Source: Dietzia sp. B32 (lineage in GTDB: Bacteria; Actinomycetota; Actinomycetes; Mycobacteriales; Mycobacteriaceae). From it: 64,000 nt of DNA. The stretch is from the NCBI RefSeq assembly GCF_024732245.1, contig NZ_CP093845.1, positions 1,426,001 to 1,490,000 on the forward strand, written 5' to 3'. Below, piece by piece: positions 3,627 to 19,754 of this stretch. The notes beneath the pieces were generated by a model, which was not told where the DNA came from, did no database searches, and saw only the letters and a program-made list of their open reading frames with translations. The translations under genes were made by a program, and so were the position numbers. Positions within the stretch are counted from its first letter, which is position 1. Every line of letters begins with the position of its first letter.

Positions 3627-4610
3627 TCAGTTCTTGCGCAGGTCCGGCGCCGGGGCGCCCAGCAGGTGCACGCGCGCGGCGGACCAGACCGCGCGCACCG
3701 CTGCCTCCACGTTCTCCTGCCCCCGGCCCAGCACCCGCAGCCAGGCGCCGCAGCCGTCCGGCAGGGTGCTCACCCCGCACCGCACCGCCGCATCGGGGTC
3801 ATCTGAGCCCCGGGCCGCGGCCCCGGCTGCCGCGTCAGCCGCCGCGTCAGCCGCGGCCCGCATGACCGCCGCGAGCGCGTCGGCCGGGCCGGGAGCCACC
3901 ACGAACAGGGTCCCGATCGCGTCGGCGTCGCCGGTGACCAGCGGATGGCCGGCCTCGGCGCGGGTGATGTGGGTGGTGTCCACGGCGAGCAGGGTGCCGT
4001 CGGGGCGGGAGATCTCCACGGCCGAGACGTAGGCGTTCACGTCCCAGCTCTCCCCGCGGGCGACGCGTCCGGCGGTGAGGACGTCAGCCGCGATGAACAC
4101 GGCGTCGTCGGGGACTTCGGCCCGCAGCCGTTGCTGGAACCGGCTGCCGCCGTACGGGATGAGCGGATCCGGCAGCCACTCGCACACCGCGCCCGCGCCC
4201 AGCGTCAGGGAGACGTTCTGGGTGGCATAGCCGACGTCCATCCGGTGCACGCGGTTCGCGGCCTGGGTGGTGACCAGGGCGTGCGCGCCGGCGGCCACCC
4301 GGACGTCCATGTCGAGTCGGTCGCCGCCGACGATCCCGCCGCCGGTCGACATCACGTACACCGTCGGCATCTGGCGCAGCACCGGGTCGATGTACAGCGG
4401 CCGCATCACCTGCAGCGGGGACTTCTGGAACCGCTCGGCCAGAACCGTCCGCCCGGCGGGGTCGCAGCCGTCGAGACGGAACGCCAGGTCCAGCACGCCG
4501 ACCTTGCCGGGCGAGCCGACTGGGAGCGCCCCGGGCCCGGTCTGCGGTCCGGCCGCGACCGAGGGCCACACGAACCCCGGGTCGGCGGCGCGGGTCAGCC
4601 GGTCGCTCAC
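3627..4610 (-). CDS. ureD: Urease accessory protein UreD (UreH)
   Basis: A 327-residue urease maturation scaffold that binds apo-urease and, with UreF and UreG, forms the nickel-insertion complex. The conserved UreD segments are present: VLAERFQKSPLQVMRPLY, the glycine-rich STGGGIVGGDRLDMDV and the TTQAANRVHRM region. The GTG start is set by the GTGA overlap with the ureG stop; the longer open frame upstream merely shadows ureG. An Ala-rich insertion (AAADAAADAAAGAAA) sits near residue 250. It is the last gene of the ureG-ureD pair and is followed by the urtA promoter region. Confidence 0.93.
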   Translation of the reverse strand: MSDRLTRAADPGFVWPSVAAGPQTGPGALPVGSPGKVGVLDLAFRLDGCDPAGRTVLAERFQKSPLQVMRPLYIDPVLRQMPTVYVMSTGGGIVGGDRLDMDVRVAAGAHALVTTQAANRVHRMDVGYATQNVSLTLGAGAVCEWLPDPLIPYGGSRFQQRLRAEVPDDAVFIAADVLTAGRVARGESWDVNAYVSAVEISRPDGTLLAVDTTHITRAEAGHPLVTGDADAIGTLFVVAPGPADALAAVMRAAADAAADAAAGAAARGSDDPDAAVRCGVSTLPDGCGAWLRVLGRGQENVEAAVRAVWSAARVHLLGAPAPDLRKN

Positions 4611-5242
4611 CGTGCGGGCAGCAGTTCCACCCGGCGGGACTCGAAGTAGTCGAGCACCTCGTCGATGCCCGTCCCGGAGAGGCAGTCGGTGAGCGCGACG
4701 GGCTTGCCCGAGCGGACGCGGTCGGCGTCCGAGGACATCACGCCCAGGTCGCAGCGCACGTACTGGGCGATGTCGATCTTGTTGATCACCAGCAGGTCGC
4801 ACTCGGTGATACCCGGTCCGCGCTTGCGGGGCATCTTCTCCCCCTCGGCGGTGTCCAGAACAAATACGAACAGGTCGACCAGCGCCGGGGAGAAGGTCAG
4901 CGTCAGGTTGTCCCCGCCGGACTCGTAGATGAGGGTGTCGACGTCAGGGTGCTCCTCGAGCATCTCCGCTCCCACCGCGAGATTCATGGTGGGGTCATCG
5001 CGTACCGCGGTGTGCGGGCACGAGCCGGTCTCCACGCCCACGACCCGGGCGGGATCGAGGACACCGGCCAGGGTGCGGCGGACGTGCTCGGCGTCCTCCT
5101 GCGTGTAGATGTCGTTCGTGATCACGGCCGGGGTGCGGCCCCGCGCGATCAACCCCGGAACCAGTGCCTCGATGAGCGCGGTCTTGCCCGAGCCCACCGG
5201 CCCGCCGATCCCGATCCGCAACACCTGCTGTGCCTCTGCCAT
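4607..5242 (-). CDS. ureG: Urease accessory GTPase UreG
   Basis: A 211-residue SIMIBI-class GTPase that delivers nickel to urease. Visible motifs are the P-loop GPVGSGKT (residues 14-21), the metal-binding CPH (76-78) in GSCPHTAVRDD, ESGGDN, and the guanine-specificity NKID. There is no N-terminal His-rich stretch, so nickel must come from another protein. The start is ATG at 5242 with a GlnR-like box only 24 bases upstream. It is coupled to ureD by GTGA. It is separated from ureF by an MFS gene, unlike the usual ureFGD order. Confidence 0.96.
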   Translation of the reverse strand: MAEAQQVLRIGIGGPVGSGKTALIEALVPGLIARGRTPAVITNDIYTQEDAEHVRRTLAGVLDPARVVGVETGSCPHTAVRDDPTMNLAVGAEMLEEHPDVDTLIYESGGDNLTLTFSPALVDLFVFVLDTAEGEKMPRKRGPGITECDLLVINKIDIAQYVRCDLGVMSSDADRVRSGKPVALTDCLSGTGIDEVLDYFESRRVELLPAR

Positions 5243-5291: not shown

Positions 5292-6506
5292 CTAGTTCCT
5301 CGGCAGGACCAGCGCGGCCAGCAGGGTCGCGGCGGCGGTCAGGCCCAGCACCATCGCGACGGTTCCCGGCCATCCCGCCACGTGCAGGAAGATCCCGCCC
5401 ACGAACCCGAACAGCGACGAGCCTCCGTAGTAGCCCAGGTTGTACAGCGACGAAGACTGGGAACGTCCCGCAACGGCCGAGGCCCCCGCCCAGCCGGACG
5501 CGACCGCGTGAGAGGCGAAGAACCCCACGGTGAGCACCACCGTCCCGGCGATGATGACCCACGCGTTGGGCACCAGGGTGAGCGCGGTGCCGGCCATCAT
5601 GGTCAGGTTGCCCGCGATGAGCACCGGCTTCCGGCCGAACCGTGAGGCCATCACACCGGCCCGGGGCGCCGAGAAGGTGCCGGCGAGATAGGCCAGGAAG
5701 ATGAAGGACACCAGCCAGATGGGCATCGAGAACGGCGGGTCCGCCAGGCGGAAGCCGAGAAAGTTGTACACGGCCACGAACCCGCCCATCGTGAGGCAGC
5801 CCTGCAAATAGATCACCAGCAATGCCGGTGATCGCAGGTTTCCCACGAGCGCCCCGACCGCTACCGACAGCCGGGTGACCCGAGGGGTGAAGTTCTGGGC
5901 GCGCGGGGCGGTGCGCAGGAAGATGAGCACGCAGAGCACCGCGAGTCCCGTGACCGAGAGCATCCCGAGTTCCCAGCCGATCGCCTGCCCGATGGGCGCG
6001 GCGATGATCCGCCCGGCGAGTCCGCCGATGGTCGTGCCGGACACGTACGTGCCCGCCGCGATCGCGGCGACCTTCGGGCTGACCTCCTCGCTCAGGTACG
6101 CGACGGCCAGGGCGGGCACCCCGCCCAGCATGAGGCCTTCGACGAACCGCAGGGCGAGCATCCACCAGAACCCGGGCATGATCGTGATCAGCGCCGCGCA
6201 GAGGCAGGCCAAGGCAATTGCGGTGAGCATCGCCTGCTTGCGGCCGACCGCGTCGCCGACATACGACCACGGGATCACGCCCAGTGCCACGCCGAGAGTG
6301 GCTGCGGAGATCATGAGCGCGGCCCGGTCCGGACTGACCTGCTGCTCGGTCGAGATCAGCGGCAGCAGACCCTGGGGTGAGTACAGCTGCGCGAACGTGG
6401 CCACCCCGATGAAGAAGAGCGCGGTCAACAACCGTCGATACGGCGGGGTCCCCGCCTGCAACCTCTGCGACTCCACGTCATCGCTACTCACCATGCGCAC
6501 ACGCAT
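5292..6506 (-). CDS. MFS transporter (YnfM-like family)
   Basis: A 404-residue major facilitator with about 12 hydrophobic segments. Motif A appears as GDAVGRKQ near residue 85 and again as SRFGRKP in the second half. The hydrophilic N-terminus is short. Substrate is not identifiable from sequence; the closest family I recognise is YnfM/CynX-like carriers. It sits between ureF and ureG on the same strand but has a hairpin upstream (6626-6672) and a GlnR-like box downstream, so it may be an independent unit inserted into a once contiguous urease operon. Two in-frame ATGs (6506 and 6494) are possible starts. Confidence 0.85.
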   Translation of the reverse strand: MRVRMVSSDDVESQRLQAGTPPYRRLLTALFFIGVATFAQLYSPQGLLPLISTEQQVSPDRAALMISAATLGVALGVIPWSYVGDAVGRKQAMLTAIALACLCAALITIMPGFWWMLALRFVEGLMLGGVPALAVAYLSEEVSPKVAAIAAGTYVSGTTIGGLAGRIIAAPIGQAIGWELGMLSVTGLAVLCVLIFLRTAPRAQNFTPRVTRLSVAVGALVGNLRSPALLVIYLQGCLTMGGFVAVYNFLGFRLADPPFSMPIWLVSFIFLAYLAGTFSAPRAGVMASRFGRKPVLIAGNLTMMAGTALTLVPNAWVIIAGTVVLTVGFFASHAVASGWAGASAVAGRSQSSSLYNLGYYGGSSLFGFVGGIFLHVAGWPGTVAMVLGLTAAATLLAALVLPRN

Positions 6507-6704: not shown

Positions 6705-7487
6705 TCAGGACGCGAACAGCCGCGCGTCGGCCCGCTCGTGGTGGCAGGAAGCCAGGTCGAGCACCGGCGCGAAGCCGCCGAGCTCCTCGAGTGACCGACT
6801 CACGGCGGCGTCCGCGACCTCGGCGATCACCGGGGCCGCACCGCGGACGAGGGCCTGCGCACTGCGGTGATCGGCCAGGCGCAGCCGCAGCGCGGCGCCC
6901 GAGAGGCTGATGACCAACGCGGTGAGGTCCGCGGCCACGGCCTCCCGCTGGCTCAGCCCGCCGCGGGCGTAGACCACGCCCATGACCACCGACTGCGAGC
7001 CCGGCGATCGGCGGGCCCGGACGTGGCCGTTCCACGCGGACACCACCGGGTCGTCGAGGAGTTCGGCGGCGAGGTCGAGGACCTGCTTGCCGGTGCGGGT
7101 GGCGCCGTCGCGGAACTCGCGGGTCAGTCGGGTGGCGTGGAGCCGCCGATCGATGCGGGTCAGCGCGGCGAGCAGCGCGGCGGTGTCAGCGGAAGCAGAG
7201 TCAGTGCAAGCAGGATCGGCGGCCGCCGGGTCGCCGGCGTGCTCGCGGGTGGCCGCCCAGGCGAGGGCCAGCGCGGTCGCCTCGGCCGGGCCGGCCGAGT
7301 GGCGCAGGATCCCGTGCACGGCCTCGGCCACGGACCGCGCCCCAGTTCCGGCCCCGGCCCCTGCGTCGACGGCGCCCAACTGCCGCAGCCCCTCGAGCCC
7401 GTGCGAAAGCGTGTACATGCCCGACGGGAACGACGAGTCCGTGAACTGCAGCGCCAGGAGCAACTGCGAGAGGCCCGGGGTGCCCAT
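6705..7487 (-). CDS. ureF: Urease accessory protein UreF
   Basis: A 260-residue UreF-type accessory protein, which acts as the GTPase-regulating partner of UreG in the UreDFG complex. The family N-terminal block LALQFTDSSFPSGMYTLSHGLE is present (residues 9-30), and the central part is helical and Ala-rich. The start is ATG 7487, giving a TGATG one-base overlap with the ureC stop; a GTG directly before it (7490) is an alternative. It ends the ureA / CbiX-like / ureBC / ureF unit and is followed by a strong hairpin. Confidence 0.92.
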   Translation of the reverse strand: MGTPGLSQLLLALQFTDSSFPSGMYTLSHGLEGLRQLGAVDAGAGAGTGARSVAEAVHGILRHSAGPAEATALALAWAATREHAGDPAAADPACTDSASADTAALLAALTRIDRRLHATRLTREFRDGATRTGKQVLDLAAELLDDPVVSAWNGHVRARRSPGSQSVVMGVVYARGGLSQREAVAADLTALVISLSGAALRLRLADHRSAQALVRGAAPVIAEVADAAVSRSLEELGGFAPVLDLASCHHERADARLFAS

Positions 7488-9655
7488 CACGCCAGGTAGT
7501 GGAGCTGGGCCAGCGGCAACGTGGTGGCGGGGGCGATGGTGGCGGGCTCGCCGTCGACGGTGACGACGTATGTCTCGGGATCCACCTCGATCGTCGGGCA
7601 GCGGTCGTTGCGGACCATGTCCTTCTTGCCGATCCCGCGGCACCCGCGCACGGGCAGGCACGGCGAGGTGAGGCCCAATTCTTCGGGCACGCCCGCCTCG
7701 ATCGCCGCCGCGGACAGGAACGTCACCCGCGTGGACTGCAGCGCCCCGCCGTACGCGCCGAACATCGGGCGGTAGATCACCGGCTGCGGCGTGGGCAGCG
7801 ACGCGTTGGGATCACCCATCGGCGCCCACACGATCATCCCGCCCTTGATGATGAGCGACGGCTTGGCCGCGAACGAGTCCACGGGCCACACCACGAGGTC
7901 CGCGAGCTTGCCGGGTTCGACCGATCCGAGGTGGTCGGCGATGCCCGCGGCGATCGCGGGGTTGATGGTCATCTTGGCGACGTAGCGCAGGACGCGCTCG
8001 TTGTCATTGCGGTCGCTGTCCTCGGGCAGCGGACCCCGCTCGACGCGGCAATGGTGGGCGGTCTGGAACGCCCGTTGCCACGACTCCCCGATCCGGCCCA
8101 TGGCCTGGGAGTCCGAGGAGAAGATGGAGATGATCCCCTCGTCGTGCAGGACGGTCTCGGCGGCGATCGTCTCCGCGCGCACCCGGGAGTCGGCGAAGCT
8201 CACGTCCTCCGGGATGTCGTGCGACAGGTGGTGGCACACCATCACCATGTCCAGCAGTTCGTCGACCGAGTTCACGGTGTACGGCAGCGTGGGGTTGGTC
8301 GAGGCGGGCAGGACGTTGGGCTCGCCGCACACCCGCAGGATGTCCGGCGCGTGGCCGCCGCCGGCGCCCTCGGAGTGGAAGGTGTGGATGGTGGAGTCGC
8401 CGAACGCCGCGCGGGTGTCCTCGTAGAAGCCCGACTCGTTGAGGGTGTCGGTGTGAATCGCGACCTGCACGTCGTACTCGTCAGCCACCTCCTGCACGCA
8501 GCGGATCGCCGCGGGCGTGGTGCCCCAGTCCTCGTGGATCTTCAGTCCCGCCGCGCCGGCCACGATCTGCTCGACCGCCGACTCCGGCTGCGACGTGTTG
8601 CCCTTGCCCAGCACTCCGATGTTCACCGGCAGCCCGTCGGCGGCCTGCAGCATCCGCCCGATGTTCCAGGCACCCGGCGTGCAGGTGGTGCCCTTGGTGC
8701 CCTCGGCCGGCCCGGTGCCGCCGCCGAACAGGGTGGTCACGCCGTTGCTCAGCGCCTCCTCGACCTGCTGCGGCGCGATGTAGTGGATGTGGGTGTCCAC
8801 TCCGCCGGCGGTGACGATCTTGTGCTCACCCGCCACCACCTCCGTGCCGGGCCCTATCACCAGCTCCGGGTGCACGCCGTCCTGCAGGTGCGGGTTGCCG
8901 GCCTTGCCCACGGCCACGATCCGCCCGTCGCGCACCCCGATGTCGCCCTTGACCACACCCAGCACCGCGTCGACGATGATCGCGCCCGTGATCACCATGT
9001 CCAACGCCCCCGACGCCCGCGTGCCCGCCGGGTCCTGCGCCATCCCGTCGCGGATCGCCTTGCCGCCGCCGTAGACGGCCTCGTCGCCGTAGCCGCTGCT
9101 GCCGTCGGTGGTCACCGCGTTGTGGTCGGTGGCGATCTCGATCACCAGGTCGGTGTCGGCCAGCCGCAGCCGGTCACCGACCGTGGGTCCGTAGATGTCG
9201 GTATAGGTCGCCCGCGGGATGACCGTGGGCGAGCCCTCGGCTGCGGGCACACGGTCCGGGACGGGCGCCATCTCGTCGTCGTCGTACTCGGTGAGAAATC
9301 CCCGCTCGGCCATCCTCTCCAGCGCGCGCTCGCGCACGGCCGGGTCGTCGAGCGGGCCGTCGACCAGCCCGGAGAACCCGTGGCACACCCGCTTGCCCGC
9401 GAAGTCGACCAACCGGACCGTCCGCGTCTGCCCCGGCTCGAACCGCACCGCGAGCCCCGCGCCGATCGCCAGGTGCCGCCCGTAGGCCGCGATCCGGTCG
9501 AAGCGCAGCTCCCGGTTGGCCTCGAAGAAGTGGTAGTGCGAACCCACCTGGACGGCGCGGTCGCCGGTGTTGGTCACACGCACCTCGGTGGTCCCGCGGC
9601 CGGCGCCCAGCTCGATGTCCCCGTCGCCGTAGAGGTAGTGCACCGAACCGGACAT
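7487..9655 (-). CDS. ureC: Urease beta-alpha fusion (UreB-UreC in one polypeptide)
   Basis: A 722-residue fusion of urease beta and alpha subunits. Residues 1-110 are UreB, with [19 protein letters not shown] and [12 protein letters not shown] charged linker (about 111-145) follows, then complete UreC. All active-site residues occur at a constant offset of 155 from Klebsiella UreC: His289 and His291 (THIH), carbamylated Lys372 and His374 (GLKIHEDWG), His401, His427, Cys474-His475 (VCHHL) and Asp515 (SSDSQ). Subtracting 155 leaves 567 residues, the usual UreC length, so nothing was lost. The enzyme hydrolyses urea to ammonia and carbamate using a di-nickel centre. No internal stop or frameshift separates the parts. 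Confidence 0.96.
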
Positions 9656-9681: not shown

Positions 9682-10497
9682 CTAGTGGGAGTGGGTGTAG
9701 ACGGTGCCGTCGGCGGCGACGTGCGAGTGGGCGTAACCGTGGCCGTCCTCGGCGTCGAGGGCGGCATCGATGCCGTCGTCGCCGTGGTCGAGCCGGTGCA
9801 CGGCCGCGCGGACGCGGGTGTCGATCACGCTGCGCAGCGCGGCCGGGCCGAACAGGTACTCGCCCTCGCCGGGCAGCTCGAGGCCGGTGACCGGCGCGGG
9901 GGCGAGGGTCGCCGAGACCAGCACCGGCCGTCGGCCGCCGAGGGCGCGGACGCGCTCGAGCCCCTCGGGAAGGTCGGGGTCGGGTTCGTCGCCGCCGTGG
10001 AACGCCACCTCGACCAGGCCGGGCTGCCCGTACTGCCGCGCGAGCCGGGCGAGGCGGTACATCTCGGCGTCGGCGAACGGGTCGATCGCGCGGCTCACCA
10101 GAAGCGCCGAGCACACCGCGCCGTGCTTCCGGATCACCGCGCGCAGTCGGGTGACGAGCATGGTCGCGTCGCCGAGCGGCGCGGCCAACGCCACGCGTCC
10201 TGGGGCGAGCCGCGCGCGGTCGGTACTGCCCCGGACGTCGCGCAACGTCCGGGAGCAGTCGGCGACCATCGCGGGCGCGCGGCCCAACGTCATGGGGACG
10301 ACGACGACGACGACACCGGCACCCACTCCTGCCGTATCCGGTCCCCCGGGCCTTCGCGCCTGCTCTTCCACCAGGTCGGCCAGGTCGCGGCCCGGCCGTG
10401 CGGCGGGGATGCCCAGGTCCGGCATCTTCTCGGACTCCGGGCCCAGCGCGAGGACGATCCGGGCGGTCTCCGGGTCGGTGTGCTCGTGGCCACTCAC
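9682..10497 (-). CDS. CbiX/sirohydrochlorin-chelatase-like protein with His-rich tail, candidate urease nickel chaperone
   Basis: A 271-residue protein between ureA and ureBC. Its central part ([20 protein letters not shown], then [28 protein letters not shown]) matches the pattern of class II chelatases of the CbiX/SirB/CfbA type, which bind Co or Ni. The first repeat lacks the usual His ([11 protein letters not shown] instead of a GHG-like motif). The last 41 residues hold seven His, ending [16 protein letters not shown], reminiscent of UreE His tails. The GTG start overlaps the ureA stop as GTGA. No ureE is visible in the window. A nickel-delivery role is my inference from position and tail; the fold call is from pattern only. 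Confidence 0.7.
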
Positions 10498-10814
10498 GCG
10501 CTCTGCTCCACCGGCCCGATGGGGTCGTGCACGGTGACGAGCTTGGTCCCGTCGGGGAACGTGGCCTCGACTTGGATCATCGCCAGCCGCTCGACCACTC
10601 CGGCCATCACCCGGCCGGCGTCGAGAACCTGCCGGCCGAGGTCCATGCATTCGGCGACCGTGCGGCCGTCGCGCGCGTGCTCGACGATCTCCCACGAGAT
10701 GAGCGCGGTGGCCTCGGGGACGTTGAGCAGCACCCCACGCTCGAGCCTGCGACGCGCGACCTCGGCCGCGGTGAACAGGGTGAGCTTGTCCAACTCGCGG
10801 GGGGTGAGCTTCAT
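10494..10814 (-). CDS. ureA: Urease gamma subunit UreA
   Basis: A 106-residue urease gamma subunit starting [20 protein letters not shown]. The family block [24 protein letters not shown] and the C-terminal [18 protein letters not shown] are intact. Longer in-frame starts upstream run into intergenic hairpin sequence and are rejected. It is first in the unit and couples to the CbiX-like gene by GTGA. A GlnR-like box lies 63 bases upstream. Confidence 0.97.
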
Positions 10815-10876: not shown

Positions 10877-10892
10877 GTGTCGGCAGTGTTAC
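10877..10892 (-). promoter_or_regulatory. GlnR-like box upstream of ureA
   Basis: Plus-strand GTGTC-n6-GTTAC, read toward ureA as GTAAC-n6-GACAC. The same 5-mers and spacing recur at 39322-39337 in front of the nickel-type transporter, in that gene's own orientation. Confidence 0.55.
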
Positions 10893-10975
10893 TTGGTTCC
10901 GGCCCGGGCCTTCCTCCCGCCGCACCCCCGCCGCGCCCGCGCTGCGCCCTCGCTGCGCCCTCGCTGCGCGAGCCC

Positions 10976-11022
10976 CTGACCTGCGGTGCCCTGCGGGAGG
11001 CGTGCAGGGCACCGCAGGTCAG
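10976..11022. repeat. Intergenic hairpin (copy 2), perfect 19-bp arms, in a divergent promoter region
   Basis: Left arm 10976-10994 (CTGACCTGCGGTGCCCTGC) and right arm 11004-11022 are perfectly complementary, with a 9-base loop. It lies between the divergent ureA and uraD starts, so it cannot serve as a terminator for either gene. A short direct repeat of GCGCCCTCGCT lies just before it (about 10940-10968). Confidence 0.7.
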
Positions 11023-11104
11023 GGCGCCGGGGCCGATTGTTACGCCGTGTTACGACTGCCGCGTCGGCGGTGTTCCGGGCCCCTGCCGCTGCGATGATGA
11101 GCCC

Positions 11105-11683
11105 GTGCCCGAGACCACCACACCCCCCGTTTGCTCTCGTTCCGCCGAGACCGTCGATCCCGCCGTGGTCGGGTTCGACGCCGCGCCCACGAACGAGCTG
11201 ATGCCGGTCCTCACCGAACTCTCCGGGTCGAAGGCCTGGGCGCGAGCGGTGCTGGAGGGGCGGCCGTACTGCTCCCGCGACGCGCTGCACGCCGCGGCCC
11301 GGCAGGTGCTCGACAAGCAGGGCGACGCCGAGGTGCTGGCCGCGGTCGACGCGCACCCGCCGATCGGCGCGGGCTCAGGCGGCGGCGCGGGCACGGGCGC
11401 GCCCCGGGAGGTCGGGCAGGCCTCCGCTCGGGAGCAGAGCGCAGCCGCCACCGCGGATGCCGAACTCGCACGCCGGCTCGCCGAAGGGCAGAGTCGGCAC
11501 GCCGAGCACTTCGGCCACGCGTTCCTCGTGTGCGCGACCGGGCTGACCGCGCAGGACATCGTGGCCGAACTCGACCGGAGAATCGACCTCACCGCAGCGG
11601 AGGAGCTCGCCACCACCCGCGAGCACCTGGCCGCCATCAACGCCCTGCGGCTGGACCGATTGCTCGACACCGGAGCCCTCTGA
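11105..11683 (+). CDS. uraD: OHCU decarboxylase (2-oxo-4-hydroxy-4-carboxy-5-ureidoimidazoline decarboxylase)
   Basis: A 192-residue enzyme that decarboxylates OHCU to S-allantoin in urate breakdown. The motif HPPIG (canonical HPRIG region), the block HFGHAFLVCATG and the C-terminal RLDRLL helix fit the family. The first ~20 residues are variable. The GTG start at 11105 is the likeliest; longer frames upstream translate the hairpin. It overlaps uraH by one base (TGATG). It is one of the few plus-strand genes in this cluster and diverges from ureA. Two GTTAC sequences ten bases apart (11039, 11049) lie upstream but do not show the six-base spacer. Confidence 0.88.
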   Translation: MPETTTPPVCSRSAETVDPAVVGFDAAPTNELMPVLTELSGSKAWARAVLEGRPYCSRDALHAAARQVLDKQGDAEVLAAVDAHPPIGAGSGGGAGTGAPREVGQASAREQSAAATADAELARRLAEGQSRHAEHFGHAFLVCATGLTAQDIVAELDRRIDLTAAEELATTREHLAAINALRLDRLLDTGAL

Positions 11684-12006
11684 TGTCGCTCAGCACCCAC
11701 GCCCTGGACACCGCCACCGGCACCCCGGCGGTCGGCCTGGGCTACCGCCTCACCGACTCCGCCGGCACCGAACTCGCTTCCGGGATCACCGACGCCGACG
11801 GCCGGGGACCCGATCTGGCGCGAGTGGAGATCGGGGCCGGCGTGTACCGCTTGGCCTTCGACACCGGCGGCTACCACCGGGCCGCCGGAGTGGCCGGCTT
11901 CTACCCGGAGGCGGTGGTGTGCTTCGAGGTGACGGACCCGGCCGCCCACCACCACGTGCCGCTGATCCTGTCGCCGTTCGGGTACAGCACCTACCGCGGA
12001 TCCTGA
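11683..12006 (+). CDS. uraH: 5-hydroxyisourate hydrolase (transthyretin-like)
   Basis: A 107-residue transthyretin-related hydrolase that opens 5-hydroxyisourate to OHCU. It carries the N-terminal STHALDTATGTPA block and the diagnostic C-terminal tetrapeptide YRGS. Length is normal for the cytosolic family. The start codon overlaps the uraD stop, so the two consecutive steps of urate ring opening are made together. A separate urate oxidase is not visible next to it. Confidence 0.95.
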   Translation: MSLSTHALDTATGTPAVGLGYRLTDSAGTELASGITDADGRGPDLARVEIGAGVYRLAFDTGGYHRAAGVAGFYPEAVVCFEVTDPAAHHHVPLILSPFGYSTYRGS

Positions 12007-12027
12007 GGCGCAGGACTCCCCGACGCT

Positions 12028-12074
12028 CTGACCTGCGGCGCCCTGCTCCGGCCCAGCAGGGCACCCCAGGTCAG
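12028..12074. terminator. Intergenic hairpin (copy 3) between convergent genes
   Basis: Arms 12028-12046 and 12056-12074, 19 bases with two mismatches. The right arm is GCAGGGCACCCCAGGTCAG. It sits between the uraH stop (plus) and the amidohydrolase stop (minus), so it could end both transcripts. A 10-base direct repeat (GTCAGCGCCG) follows toward 12090. Confidence 0.6.
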
Positions 12075-12090
12075 CGCCGGTCAGCGCCGG

Positions 12091-13413
12091 TCAGCGTCCG
12101 ATACCCCGCCGGGCGCACTGCTCTCGTAGCTCCGCGGCCAGGGCCCGCTCGTCGGCGGTGACGAGCTCGAAGTCCCGCACCACCACGCGGCCGCCCACCA
12201 CCACGTGGCGGGGCCGGCGCCCGGGACAGGCCCACAGCAGCCCTCGGATCGGGTCCGCGACCCCGGCGTCGGCGACCCCGGAGACGTCCCACACCACCAG
12301 GTCCGCGGCAGACCCCGGCGCGAGCCGGCCCAACTCGGGGCGCCCCAGCCCGTCGGCGCCGCCGGCGGTGATCATCTCCAGCACCTCGAGCGCGTCCAGT
12401 GGTCGCCCGGCGAGCGGGGCGACCTGCATCGCCAGGCGCGCATCGGCCAGGAGGTGTCCGGCGTCGTTGCTGCCACCGCCCGAGGTTCCGAGCCCCATGG
12501 CCACTCCGGAGTCGCGCAGTCGGGCCACCGGCGCCACTCCCCACCCCATCGGAAGATCGCAGGCGGGGGCGTGGGTCGCGGAGACCCCGCTGCCGGCGAT
12601 CAGCGCGATCTCGGGGTCCGTGACGTCGCAGAGGTGGGCGAGGGTGACGTCCGGCTCGAGCCAGCCCCACTCCTCCAGCAGATCCAGGGGTCGACGTCCG
12701 TACAGCTCGGCGGCGCGGGCCACGTCGACCTGCTCGTTGGCCTGGGTACGCCGGCGGAGCCCGAGCCGGCGCGCGACCTCCCCCAGGGCGGCGAAGGTGG
12801 CGGGCCCGTCCGCGTGCACTCCCGACGGCCCCACGGCCAACTGCCGCATCCCGTCGACGGTGACGCCGCCGGTCGCGCCGGGCAGGTGCGCAGCGTGGAT
12901 CGCCTCGACCGACGCCGCCGCGGCATCCGGGTCGTCACCGGCGGTGCCGCGGACGAAGGCCAGTCGCGATCCGAGTATCTGCGCGCCGGCGTACGCAGCA
13001 CCGGCGATCTGCACGGGGTCCGCGCCCGTCGGCCACGTGAGGTGGTGGTCGGCCACGGTGGTGACGCCGCACAGCAACGACTCGGCCAGCGCCACGCGGG
13101 CGGACAGTTCGACCAGCTCAGGGTCGACCCGCGCGGCGACGTAGGCCTCACGCATCCGGGCCAGCCACCCGGCCATCTCCACGCTGCGGGTACCGGGCAG
13201 GGTGCGGAACGCGCTCTGCAGTAGGTGATGGTGGGCGTTGACCAGGCCCGGGGTGACGACGCCGCCGCCGGCGTCGAGGGTCTCGACCACAGCATCGTCC
13301 GGCGCCGCGGCGATCCGCCCGTCCACGCACTCCACCGTGGCGGAGCCCGCCGACTCGAGCCCCGGCGACCAGACCGCCGAGGCACCGGTCACCCGCAACA
13401 CCCGCGCGCTCAT
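12091..13413 (-). CDS. Amidohydrolase-family protein with substituted metal ligands
   Basis: A 440-residue member of the 8-oxoguanine / hydroxyatrazine deaminase branch of the amidohydrolase superfamily. The beta-1 metal motif VNAHHHLLQ and the AHLCDV histidine are present. The expected HxxE (HTHLAE) is instead TQANEQ, and the catalytic Asp of the G-T-D-G motif is Ser (GLGTSGGGSND). Both substitutions are clear in the DNA. The gene is otherwise intact and is last in the XDH unit, overlapping the XDH gene by ATGA. It may be a non-hydrolytic or altered-specificity paralogue of the deaminase at 16954-18360. Activity cannot be predicted. Confidence 0.85.
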   Translation of the reverse strand: MSARVLRVTGASAVWSPGLESAGSATVECVDGRIAAAPDDAVVETLDAGGGVVTPGLVNAHHHLLQSAFRTLPGTRSVEMAGWLARMREAYVAARVDPELVELSARVALAESLLCGVTTVADHHLTWPTGADPVQIAGAAYAGAQILGSRLAFVRGTAGDDPDAAAASVEAIHAAHLPGATGGVTVDGMRQLAVGPSGVHADGPATFAALGEVARRLGLRRRTQANEQVDVARAAELYGRRPLDLLEEWGWLEPDVTLAHLCDVTDPEIALIAGSGVSATHAPACDLPMGWGVAPVARLRDSGVAMGLGTSGGGSNDAGHLLADARLAMQVAPLAGRPLDALEVLEMITAGGADGLGRPELGRLAPGSAADLVVWDVSGVADAGVADPIRGLLWACPGRRPRHVVVGGRVVVRDFELVTADERALAAELREQCARRGIGR

Positions 13414-16085
13414 GCCCGGCCGCCGATCGACACGGCGGCGGACGGGGTCCGGCTCGTCGCCGCGGGAGCCCGGCCGTCGCGCGGTGCGAACGACCTGATC
13501 CACACCAGGTCCGGGGTCAGGGGGATGAGGTCCTGCCGCACCCCGGTGGCCCGCCGGACGGCGATCCCCACGGCCGCGGCGACCGGACAGTACGGGGCCT
13601 CGGACATGGACTTGGCGCCCAGGACGCCCTCGGGCTCGACGGTGTCGGCGAAGAACACCTCGGTGCGCGGGACGTCGCCCATGCGGGGTGGGTGGTAGTG
13701 CCGCAGTGTCGCGTTGGTGACCGCGCCGGTCTCGTCGAGCATCACTTGCTCGTACAGTGCCGCGCCGAGCGCCTGGGCGACCCCGCCCTCCACCTGCCCT
13801 CTCAGCTGCTGCGGGTTGAGGACCCGCCCGGCGTCCACGGCGTGGACACTGTGCAGTACCTTCACCGTCCCGGTGTCGGGACACACGGCCACGCGTACGC
13901 CCTGGACGGTGAACGCGGCCTGCCGCCCCAGCCCGTCGGCGCACCCCTCGGCGGACACGGGCAGGTGGGCCCCGGCGCGGAGCAGCTCGGCGACCCGGGT
14001 GGCCGCGCGGTACAGGGCGCGCCCACCCACCACGGTGCCGGCGGAGCCGAACGCGCCCGTGTCGTGGGTGAGCAGGGCGGTGTCGGAGGCGTGCAGCACC
14101 ACCGAGTCGGACGGCACGCCCAGCGCCTCGGCGACGATCTGGGTGTGCACGGTCGCGGTCCCGTTGCCGAACTCGGCCGTGCCCACGTAGGCGTGCACGG
14201 TGCCGTCGGCGGTGATCTCGACGCGGGCCGAACCGTGGTGACCCCCGGGCGGATTGGTGGCGATCATGCACAGCGCGACCCCGGTCCCCTCCGCCCACCC
14301 GGGCGGCGCGGTCTCCCCGCGACCGGAGGCCAGGGCCCCTGCCACCAGGTCCAGGCAGTGGTCGAGTCCGTAGGAGGACAGGCTCAGCTCGTCGTCGTCG
14401 CCAGCGGAGCTCACCAACGCGTCACCCGGGCGCACCACGTTGCGCCGCCGCAGCTCCACGGGGTCCAGCCCGGCGGCGTCGGCGAGTTCGTCCAGCGCGC
14501 TCTCCAGGGCGAACCCCACCTCCCCCAGCCCGTACCCGCGGAACGCCCCCGACGGCACGGTGGTCGTGTAGACGGCCTCGGCGGTCACCCGCTTGGCCGG
14601 GCATCGGTACAGCTCCACCGACTCGGTGACGGAGTGGAACATCACACCCGCCGAGTGGCCCCCGTACGCGCCGGCGTCGGACAGCACGTCCAGTTCGAGA
14701 GCGGTGAGCCGGCCGTCGTCGTCGCAGGCCACGGTGACGGTGGTGCGGTACGGGTGACGCACGGTGGCGGAGGTGAACTGCTCGGCGCGCGAGTACTCCC
14801 ACACCACGTCACGGCCGGTGCTCAGAGCGGCGAGCACGGCCAGGTCCTCCACGATCATCTCCTGCTTGGCGCCGAACCCGCCGCCCACGCGCGCGGCGTG
14901 GACGCGCAGGTCATCGCGGTCCAGGCCGAAGATCCACGCCAACTCGTCACGCACGAGGAACGGCACCTGGGTGGAGGACCGGATGTCGAGTGACCCGCCG
15001 ACCCGGGGCCCGCCGTCGACGTGCCGCACGATCACCGCGTGGGTCTCCAGGTGCGTGTGCTGGACCCGCGAGGTGCTCCAGGTGCCAGTCACCGTGTGCG
15101 CTGCACGGGCGATCCCGGCGTCGACGTCGCCCACCTCACCGGACCAGTCGGCCACCACGTTGCGGGCGGGGTCGGCGATCCGGGAGTCCGGTCCCTTGTC
15201 GCCGTGGATCGCGGGCGCTCCGGGGGCGCGCGCGGCCTCGGGACCGAGGACCGACGGCAACACCTCGTAGCGCACCTCGATCAGCTGGCAGGCCCACCGG
15301 GCGAGTGCCTCCGACTCGGCCACCACCGCCGCCACGCGCTGACCGTGGTAGCGCACGACCGGGTCGAGCACGCGGGTGTCGTCGGGGTCGTCGGTCCGCC
15401 GCTGGTGGCGGGCGGTGGAGAACAGGACGTCGGGGTCGTCGTGGTGGGTGAGCACCGCGACCACACCGTCCATCGCGAGCGCGCGGGAGGCGTCGATCGA
15501 CACGATGCGGGCGTGCGCGTGCGGGGAGCGCAGCACCGCGAGATGCGCGCAGCCCGTCACGTCGGTGTCCAGGGTGAAGGGCTCCGCGCCGCGCACCACG
15601 CGCTCGGTGGCCGGCGCGGCGACCGGGCTCCCGATCCCCCCGGCGGCGCACGCGTTGTGGGCGCCGTCGAGGGCGTCGGAGATCGCCCGGTAGCCCGTGC
15701 AGCGGCACAGGTTGCCCTTCATGGCGGCGATCCTCGGCGCGGGGCCGCCGTCCCGGGCGCACGGCGCGTGCCCCAGCCCGGTGACCGTGGTGACCATCCC
15801 CGCCGTGCAGAACCCGCACTGGAAGCCGGCGGCGCGGGCGAACGCGGCCGGCACCTCGTCGGGGACCCCGGCGGCCGTGCGGACGTCGGCGCCCTCTGCG
15901 CGGTGCGCGGGCAGCACGCAGGAATGGGTGGGCACGCCGTCGACCAGCACGGAACACGCGCCGCAGTCGCCGGTGTCGCAGCCCTTCTTCACCGCGTGCA
16001 CCCCCGACTCGCGCAGCAGCGTCCGCAGGCACTGCCCGGGGCGCGGGTCGGTCTCCAGCGCCCGTCCGTCGACGGTGATCAGCAT
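13410..16085 (-). CDS. Xanthine dehydrogenase-type Fe-S plus molybdopterin subunit (fused)
   Basis: An 891-residue molybdenum hydroxylase. Residues 1-155 carry two [2Fe-2S] sites (KKGCDTGDCGACSV; QCGFCTAG ... GNLCRCTGYR). The rest is the molybdopterin domain with VGGGFGAKQE, AFRGYG, GTAEFGNG, AFGSAG and KSMSEAP, whose Glu is the likely catalytic base. FAD is on a separate gene upstream, which overlaps by 7 bases. Purine hydroxylation (hypoxanthine/xanthine to urate) is the likely role given uraD, uraH and two deaminases nearby. Other N-heterocycles are possible. Maturation would use the XdhC-like protein at 37850. Confidence 0.9.
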   Translation of the reverse strand: MLITVDGRALETDPRPGQCLRTLLRESGVHAVKKGCDTGDCGACSVLVDGVPTHSCVLPAHRAEGADVRTAAGVPDEVPAAFARAAGFQCGFCTAGMVTTVTGLGHAPCARDGGPAPRIAAMKGNLCRCTGYRAISDALDGAHNACAAGGIGSPVAAPATERVVRGAEPFTLDTDVTGCAHLAVLRSPHAHARIVSIDASRALAMDGVVAVLTHHDDPDVLFSTARHQRRTDDPDDTRVLDPVVRYHGQRVAAVVAESEALARWACQLIEVRYEVLPSVLGPEAARAPGAPAIHGDKGPDSRIADPARNVVADWSGEVGDVDAGIARAAHTVTGTWSTSRVQHTHLETHAVIVRHVDGGPRVGGSLDIRSSTQVPFLVRDELAWIFGLDRDDLRVHAARVGGGFGAKQEMIVEDLAVLAALSTGRDVVWEYSRAEQFTSATVRHPYRTTVTVACDDDGRLTALELDVLSDAGAYGGHSAGVMFHSVTESVELYRCPAKRVTAEAVYTTTVPSGAFRGYGLGEVGFALESALDELADAAGLDPVELRRRNVVRPGDALVSSAGDDDELSLSSYGLDHCLDLVAGALASGRGETAPPGWAEGTGVALCMIATNPPGGHHGSARVEITADGTVHAYVGTAEFGNGTATVHTQIVAEALGVPSDSVVLHASDTALLTHDTGAFGSAGTVVGGRALYRAATRVAELLRAGAHLPVSAEGCADGLGRQAAFTVQGVRVAVCPDTGTVKVLHSVHAVDAGRVLNPQQLRGQVEGGVAQALGAALYEQVMLDETGAVTNATLRHYHPPRMGDVPRTEVFFADTVEPEGVLGAKSMSEAPYCPVAAAVGIAVRRATGVRQDLIPLTPDLVWIRSFAPRDGRAPAATSRTPSAAVSIGGRA

Positions 16086-16957
16086 GGTGCCTCCCGGTAC
16101 GTGGGGTGGGTGAGTTCGGCGACGACGGCGGGGGCCGCGATCCCCGCCACGTGACGCCGCCAGCTCGGATCGCCCTGGGGGTCGTCGTGCCAGTGGGGCA
16201 GGTCGCGCACGGCGGCCGCGGCCTCGTCGGCGGTGGGGGGCCGGTCCCAGACGAGCACCTGCGGGGCCGGGACGGCGGCGGTCACGACGAGCGTGCAGCG
16301 GCCGCCGGGGTCCAGTCGCCCGGTGACCAGGGAGCCGGAGCGGCCGCTGGGCACCAGCGAGTGCCGCCGGACCGCGTAACGCGCCCGGCTCGCCGACGCG
16401 GGGATGACGAGCGCGCGCAGGATCTCGCCCGGGGCCAGACAGGTGAGGCCCGGGCCCACCACCACCTCGGCGGCGGGGACGGTGCGGGTGCCGCCGCCCG
16501 GGGTCCAGATCTCGGCGGTCGCGTCGAGCGTGCAGGCCGCGGCGGTCCCGGCGCCGGCGGGCAGGGCTGCGCAGAGGTTGCCTCCCCAGGTGCCGCGGCC
16601 CCAGATCTTCCACGAGGCGAGCAGGCAGGAGAACGCGTCGTGGAGGAACGGTCGCAGGGGCGCGGTGAGCTGGTGGTCCAACACGGTCCGCAGCGTGGCC
16701 GTGGCGGCCACGCGCAGTCCTCCGTCGGGCAATGGTTCGACGTCGGGCCAGCGCAGGTCGAGCAGATCCACCAGCGCGGTGACCGGGGTGGTCTCCCCCG
16801 GCGGGGCCGCGGCGCCGGCCGGGTGCAGGTGCGCCTCCCCGTGCAGGGCGGTCCCACCGGCCAGGGCCGTGGCGCCGGCGAGCAGGGCCGCGTGCGCCTC
16901 GTCCCGGCTGCGCGGCCGGTGAAGTGCGGTGACGCTGACCAGGTCCACCGCCCTCAC
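16079..16957 (-). CDS. Xanthine dehydrogenase-type FAD-binding subunit
   Basis: A 292-residue FAD subunit of the molybdenum hydroxylase (CoxM/XdhB family). The FAD-binding region GRGTWGGNLCAALPAGAGTAAACTL aligns with the usual T-x-GGN motif, and a first motif LAGATALAGGTAL is near residue 25. The GTG start is set by GTGA with the preceding deaminase gene. It feeds electrons from the Fe-S/Mo subunit to NAD or another acceptor. Its domain order (FAD alone, Fe-S and Mo fused) differs from the common bacterial XdhA/XdhB split. Confidence 0.88.
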   Translation of the reverse strand: MRAVDLVSVTALHRPRSRDEAHAALLAGATALAGGTALHGEAHLHPAGAAAPPGETTPVTALVDLLDLRWPDVEPLPDGGLRVAATATLRTVLDHQLTAPLRPFLHDAFSCLLASWKIWGRGTWGGNLCAALPAGAGTAAACTLDATAEIWTPGGGTRTVPAAEVVVGPGLTCLAPGEILRALVIPASASRARYAVRRHSLVPSGRSGSLVTGRLDPGGRCTLVVTAAVPAPQVLVWDRPPTADEAAAAVRDLPHWHDDPQGDPSWRRHVAGIAAPAVVAELTHPTYREAPC

Positions 16958-18360
16958 CCCGCCCGGGCGAGCAGCCGGCGGCGGGCGGCCACCACGTCGC
17001 GGGCCACGGCGTCGGTGTCCACGGTGAGCACGCGCCCGTCGGCCACCACCCGACGGCCCTGCACCCACACCCCGGCCATCGGCGGGCGGGACCCCAGGAC
17101 GAGCGCGGCCACCGGGTCATCGATCCCCGCGTGGGCCGGGGTGTCCAGGCGCCACAGTGCGACATCCGCCTGGTATCCGACGGCCAGCCGCCCGATCTCA
17201 CCCTCCCGCCCGAGCGCGCGGGCGCCGTCCACGGTGGCCATCCGCAGCGCCGTGCGCACGTCCATCGCCCGGGGGCCGCGGGTGGCGCGGGCCAGCAGGA
17301 GCGCGGTGTGCATCTCCTCCCACAGCACGCCCGACTCGTTGCTCGCCGAGCCGTCCACGCCCAGCCCGACCGGGATCCCCGCGGCGAGCATGTCCGGGAC
17401 GCGGGCGATTCCGGCGCCCAGGCGGCCGTTGGAGACGGGACAGTGCGCGGCCGCCATCCCGCCGGCGGCCATCGCGGCGATCGCCGGGTCGTCGAGGTGC
17501 ACGGTGTGGGCGAACCACACGTCCGGGCCCACCCAGCCCACCGTCTCCATGTACTCCATCGGTGTGCTGCCGAAGCGTTCGCGACAAAACTCCTCTTCGT
17601 CGTCGGTCTCGGCCAGATGGGTGTGCAGGCGTACGCCCCGCTCGCGGGCGAGATCGGCGCTGGTGCGCAGCAGGTCGCCGGTCACGGAGAACGGTGAGCA
17701 CGGCGCCACGGCTATGCGGCACATCGAGTCGGGGCCCGCGTCGTGGAACCGGTCGATCACGTCGGCGGTGCCGGCGAGGATCGCGTCGGTGCCCTCCACC
17801 ACCGAGTCCGGAGGCAGCCCGCCCGAGCTGCGGCCCAGATCCATTGACCCGCGACCGGGGTGGAAGCGCAGGCCCACGGCGGCGGCCGCTTCGATCTCGG
17901 CGGCGAACACGTCCCCGGCATCGGCAGGCACCACGTAGTGGTGGTCCGTGGTGGTGGTGCAGCCGCCCAGCGCCAGGTGCGCGAGCCCGCCCAGCGCGGC
18001 GGTGCGGACGTCGTCGGCGTCGATGCCCGCCCACACCGGGTACGAGGCCGTGAGCCACTCGAAGAGCGTCGCGTCGGCCGCGAGCCCCCGGGTGAGCCAC
18101 TGGTACAGGTGGTGATGGGTGTTGACCAGGCCCGGGGTGGCCAGACAACCCGTGCCGTCGACGCGCTCCGCGCCGGCCGGGATCCGCGCCGGATCGCACG
18201 GCCCCGCCCCCACCGCGGTGATCCGGCCGCCCTCGAGCAGCACGTGGCCGGTGGTGTACTCGGCACCGGCCCCGGCCCCGATCCCGACCCCGGCCCCGGC
18301 CCCGTCCATGGTCGCGACCGCGCAGTTCTCGATGAGCACCGCCGCCCCACCGGAGCTCAC
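16954..18360 (-). CDS. 8-oxoguanine deaminase-like amidohydrolase
   Basis: A 468-residue deaminase. The signature VNTHHHLYQWLTRGLAADA is characteristic of the Pa0142-type 8-oxoguanine/isoguanine deaminases. Other metal ligands are intact: HTHLAETDDE, FAHTVHLD and GLGVDGSASNE. The likely product from 8-oxoguanine is urate, which feeds uraH and uraD once oxidised. A Gly/Ala repeat (GAGAGVGIGAGAGA) sits near residue 22. The GTG start shares GTGA with the next gene. Guanine or other aminopurines remain possible substrates. Confidence 0.86.
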   Translation of the reverse strand: MSSGGAAVLIENCAVATMDGAGAGVGIGAGAGAEYTTGHVLLEGGRITAVGAGPCDPARIPAGAERVDGTGCLATPGLVNTHHHLYQWLTRGLAADATLFEWLTASYPVWAGIDADDVRTAALGGLAHLALGGCTTTTDHHYVVPADAGDVFAAEIEAAAAVGLRFHPGRGSMDLGRSSGGLPPDSVVEGTDAILAGTADVIDRFHDAGPDSMCRIAVAPCSPFSVTGDLLRTSADLARERGVRLHTHLAETDDEEEFCRERFGSTPMEYMETVGWVGPDVWFAHTVHLDDPAIAAMAAGGMAAAHCPVSNGRLGAGIARVPDMLAAGIPVGLGVDGSASNESGVLWEEMHTALLLARATRGPRAMDVRTALRMATVDGARALGREGEIGRLAVGYQADVALWRLDTPAHAGIDDPVAALVLGSRPPMAGVWVQGRRVVADGRVLTVDTDAVARDVVAARRRLLARAG

Positions 18361-19754
18361 GACCGCACCAGGCCGGGCGCGAACGCCGGGGTGAACCCCC
18401 GCGACCGGGCCGAGCGGATCATGCGCTCGGTGAGCTGGGCGTCGGCCTCGTCGGCGAGCGGGTGCAGGCTGCGCGCGCCCTCCGCCACCAGGCGTCCGCC
18501 CACGTAGACGTGGGTGAGATTGCGCAGCGAGCACGCCAGGACGTACGTGGCGACGGGGTCCCAGATCGGCCCGGTCGCCGGCCTGGTGGGGTCGACGACG
18601 ACGAGGTCCGCGTGCTTCCCCACCTCCACGCTGCCCACCCGGCCGGACAGGCCGAGGGCGTCCGCGGCCCCGAGGGTGTGCATCCGCAGGACGTCGCGGG
18701 CGGCCAGCACCGCGGCGTCGGAGTGGACGGCGCGCTGGGTGTACAGGCCGATCCGCATGTTCTGGAAAGGGTCGGACACGTCGGTGCAGGACTGGTCGTC
18801 CAGGCCCATCCCCACGCGGATGCCCGCGTCCCGGTACCGGGTGATGTCGGCGATGCCGGAGCCCAGCCGGCCGTTGGAGGTGGCCTGCCAGATCACGGCG
18901 GAGTCGGTCTCCGCGACCCGGCGGACCATGTGGTCGGTGGGGTGGACGAAGTGGCCGAAGGAGAAGTCGGGGCCCAGGACCCCGGCGCGGTCGTACCAGT
19001 CGAACTTGGCCCGCTGTACCTCGAGGTGTTCGGCGGTCTCGACGAAGTGCGCCTGGTTGCCCACGCCGTGGGTGGCCATGGCGTGGCGTTCACGCTCGGC
19101 GGTGACCGGCGACGACGACCACTGCACCGACCCGAACACCGACCCGCCCAGGTCCAGCTCCCGGGGGACGGTGCGCAGCCGGTGCTCGGTGACGTGGGCG
19201 AACGCGTCGAAGCACTCGGCCTCGGGCAGCTGCTCGTCGTCGAGGCGGGTGGAGGTGAGGCACCGGAGACCGGAGTCGGCCTGGGCGTCGACTTGCCGGG
19301 TGAGGAAGTCGATGTCGTGGACCCGCTCGGCGACCAGGGTCGAGGTGGAATGGTCGAACACCGCCACCACCCGGCTCTGGGTGAAGTTGTAGGCGCTGGT
19401 CACGCCGTTGCGCAGGAAGTCCAGGCAGCCGGCGAGGGTGAACCAGTACAGGTCCTCGGCCTCCGCACCGACCATCATCTCGCCCATCGTCGAGACCCAG
19501 CCGTAGAGCGTGTCGTCGGGGGCGGTGCCCCGCATCCCGGCGGTGAACAGGTGGCTGTGGGCGGACACGAATCCGGGGGCGAGGATCGCACCGCCCAGGT
19601 CGTGCACCGTGCCCGGCAGGCCGGGCGGCGGGTCGCCGGGGCCGAGTCCGACGATGATGCCGGCGTCGTCCACGTGGACCCAGCCGTGGAACCAGGCGGG
19701 GGCGGCCGGGTCCGCGGACACGGGCAGGACCAGCGCGTCGGTGAAGGTGATCAT
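18357..19754 (-). CDS. Amidohydrolase-family deaminase/hydrolase, substrate unknown
   Basis: A 465-residue TIM-barrel amidohydrolase with intact ligands: SAHSHLF, NQAHFVET, FGHFVHPTDH and GMGLDDQSC. It belongs broadly with chlorohydrolase/guanine-deaminase-like enzymes but differs from its two neighbours, including HSH instead of HHH and GLDD at the catalytic Asp. The start is ATG 19754. It is first of four coupled genes (this gene, 8-oxoguanine deaminase, FAD subunit, Fe-S/Mo subunit). A triplet of 11-bp-spaced boxes lies just upstream. Confidence 0.85.
   Translation of the reverse strand: MITFTDALVLPVSADPAAPAWFHGWVHVDDAGIIVGLGPGDPPPGLPGTVHDLGGAILAPGFVSAHSHLFTAGMRGTAPDDTLYGWVSTMGEMMVGAEAEDLYWFTLAGCLDFLRNGVTSAYNFTQSRVVAVFDHSTSTLVAERVHDIDFLTRQVDAQADSGLRCLTSTRLDDEQLPEAECFDAFAHVTEHRLRTVPRELDLGGSVFGSVQWSSSPVTAERERHAMATHGVGNQAHFVETAEHLEVQRAKFDWYDRAGVLGPDFSFGHFVHPTDHMVRRVAETDSAVIWQATSNGRLGSGIADITRYRDAGIRVGMGLDDQSCTDVSDPFQNMRIGLYTQRAVHSDAAVLAARDVLRMHTLGAADALGLSGRVGSVEVGKHADLVVVDPTRPATGPIWDPVATYVLACSLRNLTHVYVGGRLVAEGARSLHPLADEADAQLTERMIRSARSRGFTPAFAPGLVRS

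What the first reader, a model, noticed from the sequence alone, without database searches (positions are those of the whole stretch)
9682..10497. CbiX-like chelatase with a His-rich tail in the urease operon, a possible UreE substitute
Seen: a 271-residue gene coupled by GTGA to ureA and lying directly before ureBC. Its middle matches the CbiX/SirB/CfbA chelatase pattern and its last 41 residues hold seven His, ending in HSH. Known: CfbA inserts nickel into a tetrapyrrole, UreE is the usual nickel chaperone and often has a His tail, and no ureE is present here. Inferred: this protein binds nickel and delivers it to UreG, a chaperone type I do not know from described urease systems.
Basis: partly seen in the sequence, partly recalled or inferred. 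Interest (0 to 1): 0.82.

Follow-up and report, generated by a model that had tools for sequence, protein, structure and literature searches.

The report
Dead chelatase as urease nickel chaperone
Many actinobacteria carry, inside their urease operon, a protein built like a cobalt/nickel-inserting enzyme that has lost its catalytic histidine pair and has a histidine-rich tail; it probably supplies nickel to urease where the usual nickel chaperone UreE is missing.

Summary
In detail: a 271-residue gene (X) on the minus strand, GTGA-coupled to ureA, just before a fused ureB-ureC. X is a conserved family: in 80 of 80 named loci kept (19 genera) it follows ureA, and ureB follows in the 77 where the contig continues; no ureE was found in their held DNA. 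Eight genomes have two urease operons, one with X, one with UreE. X has the two-lobed class II chelatase fold, but 0 of 108 X rows show both catalytic histidines, against 18 of 18 chosen CbiX/SirB controls. X ends in a conserved His motif and a His-rich tail. A His tail on UreG is present in 92 of 105 readable operons with neither X nor UreE, but in 0 of 19 UreE operons and 3 of 78 X operons, the 3 probably start-codon artefacts. The window genome has no UreE and no HypB above cut-off. Best reading: a dead chelatase turned urease nickel metallochaperone, replacing UreE. Nickel binding and transfer to UreG are inferred, not shown. Against: one X-clade operon lacks X (frameshifted neighbours), and X-type UreG forms one clade, so independent events are few.

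The parts
9682..10497 (-). gene X: CbiX/SirB-fold protein with His-rich tail, 271 aa, GTG start
9685..9786 (-). X residues 238-271: conserved HG.DGI....[11 protein letters not shown] block and His tail ([16 protein letters not shown])
10438..10440 (-). X residue Pro20, at the place of catalytic His 1 (GHGS/T) of CbiX/SirB; next to family-invariant Glu21
10270..10272 (-). X residue Ala76, at the place of catalytic His 2 (GHxKGD) of CbiX; three residues after family-invariant Arg73
10494..10814 (-). ureA (urease gamma), stop overlaps X start (GTGA)
7487..9655 (-). ureB-ureC fused in one ORF (722 aa)
6705..7490 (-). ureF (start approximate)
5292..6506 (-). MFS transporter between ureF and ureG; substrate unknown
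4607..5242 (-). ureG, short N-terminus without His tail
3627..4610 (-). ureD (start approximate)

Best explanation
X is a urease-dedicated nickel metallochaperone made from a two-lobed class II (CbiX/SirB-type) chelatase that lost its tetrapyrrole metal-insertion site and carries a C-terminal His tail. It is translated together with the urease subunits. The tail and the AHSH motif gather Ni(II), and the rebuilt cleft side (invariant Glu21, Arg73, Arg119 in window numbering) docks a partner, most simply UreG or the UreD-UreF-UreG-apo-urease complex, which receives the nickel. It thereby takes the place of UreE, which is found in the sister type of operon. Shown: fold and homology, loss of the catalytic pair, conserved His tail, operon linkage, mutual exclusion with UreE, lack of a His tail on UreG. 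Inferred: nickel as the metal, the binding sites, UreG as partner, the docking surface.
Against: No metal binding, partner or phenotype was tested. X-type UreG is a single clade (quick tree without bootstrap), so the X/UreE/His-tail pattern rests on few evolutionary events however many genomes show it. G193 has an X-clade operon with ureA next to ureB, no X and no His tail on UreG, though ureC, ureF and ureD are frameshifted there. X sits between ureA and ureB, not where ureE sits in the operons read, so an action on the apo-subunits is possible. The window member has a short tail (two His after the AHSH motif). 109 of 116 UreG loci sampled in the class have neither X nor UreE nearby, so lack of ureE alone is no evidence. 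13 of 105 readable neither-type UreG also lack a His tail, so a urease can apparently do without all three.
Confidence: 0.7

Rival explanations
1. X is a nickel store or buffer for urease-making cells (a His-rich sink); it holds nickel but does not hand it to UreG in a specific complex.
For: Tails vary greatly (2 to 38 His after the AHSH motif in the 85 rows where the pattern matched), as expected for a sink; no partner is shown.
Against: The folded two-lobed part is strongly conserved with new invariant residues (E21, G72, R73, R119), which a mere sink would not need.
Confidence: 0.14
2. X is an assembly or scaffolding factor for the urease apoenzyme (UreA/UreB/UreC), translated with the subunits; its His tail feeds nickel directly or is secondary.
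For: Its fixed place between ureA and ureB and its closeness to ureA (gap -8 to +18 nt in 28 loci, with the start codon chosen by script).
Against: No UreE was found in X operons and UreG has no His tail there, so a nickel donor is wanted.
Confidence: 0.1
3. X is still an active chelatase that makes a metal-tetrapyrrole, linked to urease by an unknown cofactor or by chance.
For: Fold and profile homology to CbiX/SirB; His 1 kept in 77 of 108 rows.
Against: Both catalytic His together in 0 of 108 rows; the genome has a separate SirB-like gene with both His; the fixed linkage is to urease genes.
Confidence: 0.04
4. X is a passenger of the operon without a role in urease maturation.
For: G193 has an X-clade operon without X.
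Against: Kept in 27 of 29 genomes with an X-clade UreG in the family sample, one of the other two being cut by a contig end; X and UreG distances correlate.
Confidence: 0.02

Closest known systems
CbiX-L / SirB / CbiK class II chelatases
   Same: Two-lobed fold; profile homology over 185 columns (hhalign 98.1%). Bacillus megaterium CbiX-L also has a His-rich region proposed for metal storage and delivery (PMC7689651, passages seen).
   Different: The catalytic His pair is not seen complete in any X row. Invariant E21, G72 and R119 are in 0 of 18 controls, R73 in 1 of 18. X lies in urease operons.
UreE urease nickel chaperone
   Same: Partner gene of urease; His-rich tail in some UreE (for example L040); presence goes with a UreG that has no His tail.
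   Different: X has no UreE_N or UreE_C match and its model has the chelatase fold. X lies between ureA and ureB; UreE in the operons read lies next to ureF.
His-tailed UreG (as suggested for Mycobacterium tuberculosis and other organisms without ureE)
   Same: Same proposed job: a His-rich module that supplies nickel where UreE is missing (PMC2770081, passages seen).
   Different: There the tail sits on the GTPase itself; in X operons UreG has no tail and a separate folded protein carries it.
HypB nickel chaperone
   Same: The tail of the window protein weakly matches the HypB N-terminal prefix (NF053668, 16.3 bits, cut-off 35).
   Different: No GTPase domain match in X; no HypB above cut-off in the window genome.
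CfbA sirohydrochlorin nickelochelatase
   Different: CfbA is small, with a symmetric active site of four His from two subunits (PMC7689651, passages seen); X is two-lobed without the His pair.

Membership tests
class II chelatase (CbiX/SirB) | two-lobed class II chelatase fold | tested here: met
class II chelatase (CbiX/SirB) | profile homology across both lobes | tested here: met
   hhalign probability 98.1, E 1.2e-13 for a single comparison, 185 columns; the X profile finds CbiX-like genes at E down to 4e-11
class II chelatase (CbiX/SirB) | Pfam CbiX above gathering score | tested here: not met
   window protein 17.5 bits against 22; 16 of 28 members match at E<=0.01
class II chelatase (CbiX/SirB) | pair of catalytic His (GHGS/T and GxH sites) | tested here: not met
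   0 of 108 X rows show both (8 rows have a gap at site 1, 2 at site 2); 18 of 18 chosen controls do
class II chelatase (CbiX/SirB) | insertion of metal into sirohydrochlorin | not testable with these tools
   needs an enzyme assay
UreE | UreE_N and UreE_C domains | tested here: not met
   no UreE domain in X; none in the genome
urease nickel metallochaperone (functional class) | gene in the urease operon, conserved | tested here: met
urease nickel metallochaperone (functional class) | His-rich tail fit for metal binding | tested here: met
   the X rows not cut by a contig end (L074, L080, L116 are cut) have a His-rich C-terminus; metal binding itself untested
urease nickel metallochaperone (functional class) | stands in for UreE or a UreG His tail | tested here: met
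   by gene pattern only; exception G193
urease nickel metallochaperone (functional class) | binds Ni(II) and passes it to UreG | not testable with these tools
   needs biochemistry

The most novel reading that the evidence does not exclude
A family of chelatases has been converted from inserting metal into a tetrapyrrole to supplying nickel to a protein: the two-lobed, pseudo-twofold scaffold was kept, its active-site His pair was given up for an invariant Glu/Arg set and a His tail, and it displaced UreE once in an actinobacterial urease operon that is now found in at least 19 genera.
Probability: 0.6. Interest if true: 0.85.

Novelty: new variant of a known kind. Interest (0 to 1): 0.75.

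Why it matters
Urease maturation is a textbook case of metal delivery, with UreE, His-tailed UreG or HypB as known or proposed nickel donors (PMC2770081, passages seen). A 2026 Microbacterium genome paper (PMC13152184, passages seen) still suggests UreG/CobW-like proteins for a strain without ureE; whether that strain has X was not checked. X would be another, unrelated solution, and would show how a chelatase can become a protein-metallating chaperone. It is directly testable because the operon is compact and some genomes carry an X-type and a UreE-type urease in one cell, a natural comparison.

Tried and rejected
Simple absence of ureE as evidence: rejected, because 109 of 116 UreG loci in the class sample have neither X nor UreE nearby. 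The UreG His tail was the discriminating test instead. A first count of N-terminal His only missed C-terminal UreG tails; corrected.

HypB as fallback donor: none above cut-off in the genome (two weaker hits, one of them UreG itself, the other an unidentified gene at C1:71138-71665). NicO nickel permease: none. PDB sequence searches with X or its profile gave nothing useful. PHROGs and Rfam: nothing relevant. The two plasmid records with an X match list no gene there, so I could not learn how X is usually labelled. L029 and L030 (E about 4e-4) show no urease genes and were dropped. The partial hits (mostly model positions about 30-175) include CbiX-like genes, not X; 28 of them and the genome's own SirB were read for a control set.

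Control set: of 29 reads I kept 18. Seven had no [AG]HG[STA] motif in the frame I read, and four (L163, L165, L172, L174) were left out by hand. Three of those four have Arg where the second His stands (by eye), so degenerate CbiX-like genes exist outside the X family too, and 18 of 18 is a count on a chosen set.

Rows dropped or limited: UreG unreadable in 4 of 109 neither loci and 4 of 80 named X loci. Neither means that no X or UreE was found within about 9 kb of UreG; several of these loci are shorter because the contig ends, and in some no ureA or ureB was detected near UreG. One search scored only 9 candidates a genome, so X elsewhere in those genomes is not excluded. The 108 X rows include overlaps between the two harvests (95 distinct by their last 150 residues). 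UreG tails of L321-L326 were not scored. The match list is cut off at E about 8e-57.

Papers: ten searches showed me no paper linking a CbiX-like protein to urease; some returned far more papers than were listed (2,339, 248), and only open-licence PMC papers are held, so this is no proof of absence in print. In Arthrobacter sp. Helios (PMC9608346, passages seen) the listed genes of one urease operon skip locus tag ArtHe_04135 between gamma and beta, the place where X would be; not checked.

Full report
WHAT IS THERE. The finding is correct as a description. On the minus strand at 9682-10497 lies a 271-aa ORF (GTG start) whose start overlaps the stop of ureA in GTGA. The operon runs ureA, X, a fused ureB-ureC ORF, ureF, an MFS transporter, ureG, ureD. 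The window lies in a 3.73-Mb genome held as one contig, 99.99% complete. The nearest UreG in the tree is 98% identical, from Dietzia cinnamea, so the window is probably a Dietzia. Pfam CbiX matches the window protein only below its cut-off (17.5 against 22 bits), but 16 of 28 relatives match at E<=0.01.

A CONSERVED UREASE-OPERON FAMILY. In 301 genomes of the same family 30 have a match (31 places, 30 fetched as loci). Of the 30 loci 28 lie between ureA and ureB; two (L029, L030; E about 4e-4) show no urease genes. The 31st place (G055:C5) is a partial X after a ureA at a contig end (L313). A profile of 26 members found 88 relatives in the named genome collection, 80 kept, from 19 genera by their titles: Dietzia, Rhodococcus, Prescottella, Corynebacterium, Streptomyces, Kitasatospora, Cellulomonas, Arthrobacter, Microbacterium and others. 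In 80 of 80 X follows ureA; ureB follows in 77, the other three (L074, L080, L116) ending in or just after X. Where the contig continues the order is ureA-X-ureB-ureC-ureF-ureG-ureD; ureC was not picked up in L088. The ureA-X gap is -8 to +18 nt in 28 loci, with X starts chosen by script. One exception to context: a 3.1-Mb Embleya plasmid has X and ureB without detectable ureA, ureC, ureF or ureG within 6 kb, probably a remnant.

WHO SUPPLIES NICKEL WITHOUT UREE? Haas et al. 2009 noted that genomes without ureE mostly carry a His stretch on UreG, with Bradyrhizobium and Frankia as exceptions (PMC2770081, passages seen). I tested this at operon level. In a class-wide sample of 296 genomes, TIGR00101 found 116 UreG places in 107 genomes. 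All were examined: 115 fetched loci and the window. Five operons have UreE, two have X, 109 neither within the DNA read. The five UreE operons are also the five UreE_N matches above Pfam's cut-off in that sample. A His tail on UreG (at least 3 His in 20 residues, N or C end) is present in 92 of 105 readable neither operons, 0 of 5 UreE operons and 0 of 2 X operons. The named X loci give 3 of 76 readable, and all three have an in-frame Met directly before the usual short N-terminus. Fourteen further UreE operons give 0 of 14. So X operons behave like UreE operons: their UreG has no tail, and some other protein should bring the nickel. The other side: 13 of 105 neither operons lack a UreG tail as well. 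The window genome has no UreE and no HypB above cut-off.

MUTUAL EXCLUSION. Eight genomes carry both X and UreE: G055, G009, G017, G058, G091 and G102, G139, G142. In each the genes lie in two different urease operons. The UreE operons show no X. In G055 the two operons stand on one 20-kb stretch (L308).

EVOLUTION AND LIMITS. In a quick UreG tree of 203 rows (SH-aLRT only) the 79 X rows form one side of a branch (99), the 105 neither rows another (99), and X plus UreE rows together one side (99). X thus most likely appeared once, next to the UreE type; the many genomes are not independent events. X and UreG distances agree (Mantel r 0.84, 0 of 2000 permutations, 76 loci). In the family sample 29 genomes have a full-length X-clade UreG (68-100% identity; the next full-length group is at 61%). 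Of these 27 have X, one (G226) is cut by a contig end, and one (G193) lacks X: ureA is followed by ureB within about 25 nt, UreG has no tail, and ureC, ureF and ureD are broken by frameshifts, either errors of a 79%-complete assembly or decay. A further genome (G159) has X and a UreG split in two frames.

HOW IT MOST LIKELY WORKS. The simplest reading is that a CbiX-type chelatase, a kind of which at least one member (CbiX-L) carries a His-rich region (PMC7689651), was recruited as a nickel donor for urease. The tetrapyrrole site was lost, the scaffold was kept as a docking body, and the tail collects nickel. Homology, lost site, tail, linkage and exclusion are shown. Nickel, affinity, the receiving partner (UreG most likely, by analogy with UreE) and the docking face are inferred.

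NOVELTY. Ten paper searches (listings, some capped) showed no paper connecting a CbiX-like protein with urease. The role (urease nickel chaperone) is known; the protein family in that role appears new.

Noticed in passing
window 7487-9655 (-): ureB and ureC are fused in one 722-aa ORF.
   Followed up: no
window 5292-6506 (-): An MFS transporter gene stands between ureF and ureG; present at 90% identity in the near relative G226 (L318), not detected in the operons of Dietzia L099, L102, L106. Substrate unknown.
   Followed up: partly
window 10877-18534: Purine-degradation genes next to the urease operon: OHCU decarboxylase, HIUase, xanthine-dehydrogenase-type domains and two amidohydrolases, so urea used here may come from purines.
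   Followed up: partly
L204-L224, e.g. L205, L209, L219: A group of actinobacterial UreG proteins carries a C-terminal DPGPMAPHxH-type His tail instead of the N-terminal one; 30 of 105 readable neither-type UreG have at least 3 His in a C-terminal 20-aa window.
   Followed up: partly
L308: Two urease operons of different types (UreE and X) side by side in a Dietzia.
   Followed up: yes
L319 (G193): X-clade urease operon without X; ureC, ureF and ureD frameshifted.
   Followed up: partly
L316 (NZ_CP108777.1, Embleya plasmid): X and ureB without the rest of the urease operon within 6 kb, with a reverse-transcriptase-like ORF upstream (judged by eye).
   Followed up: partly
L165, L172, L174: CbiX-like proteins with the first catalytic His but Arg at the second site (by eye); perhaps another degenerate chelatase group; their surroundings were not examined.
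   Followed up: no
L313 (G055:C5): A second ureA with a partial X at a contig end in the same Dietzia genome.
   Followed up: no
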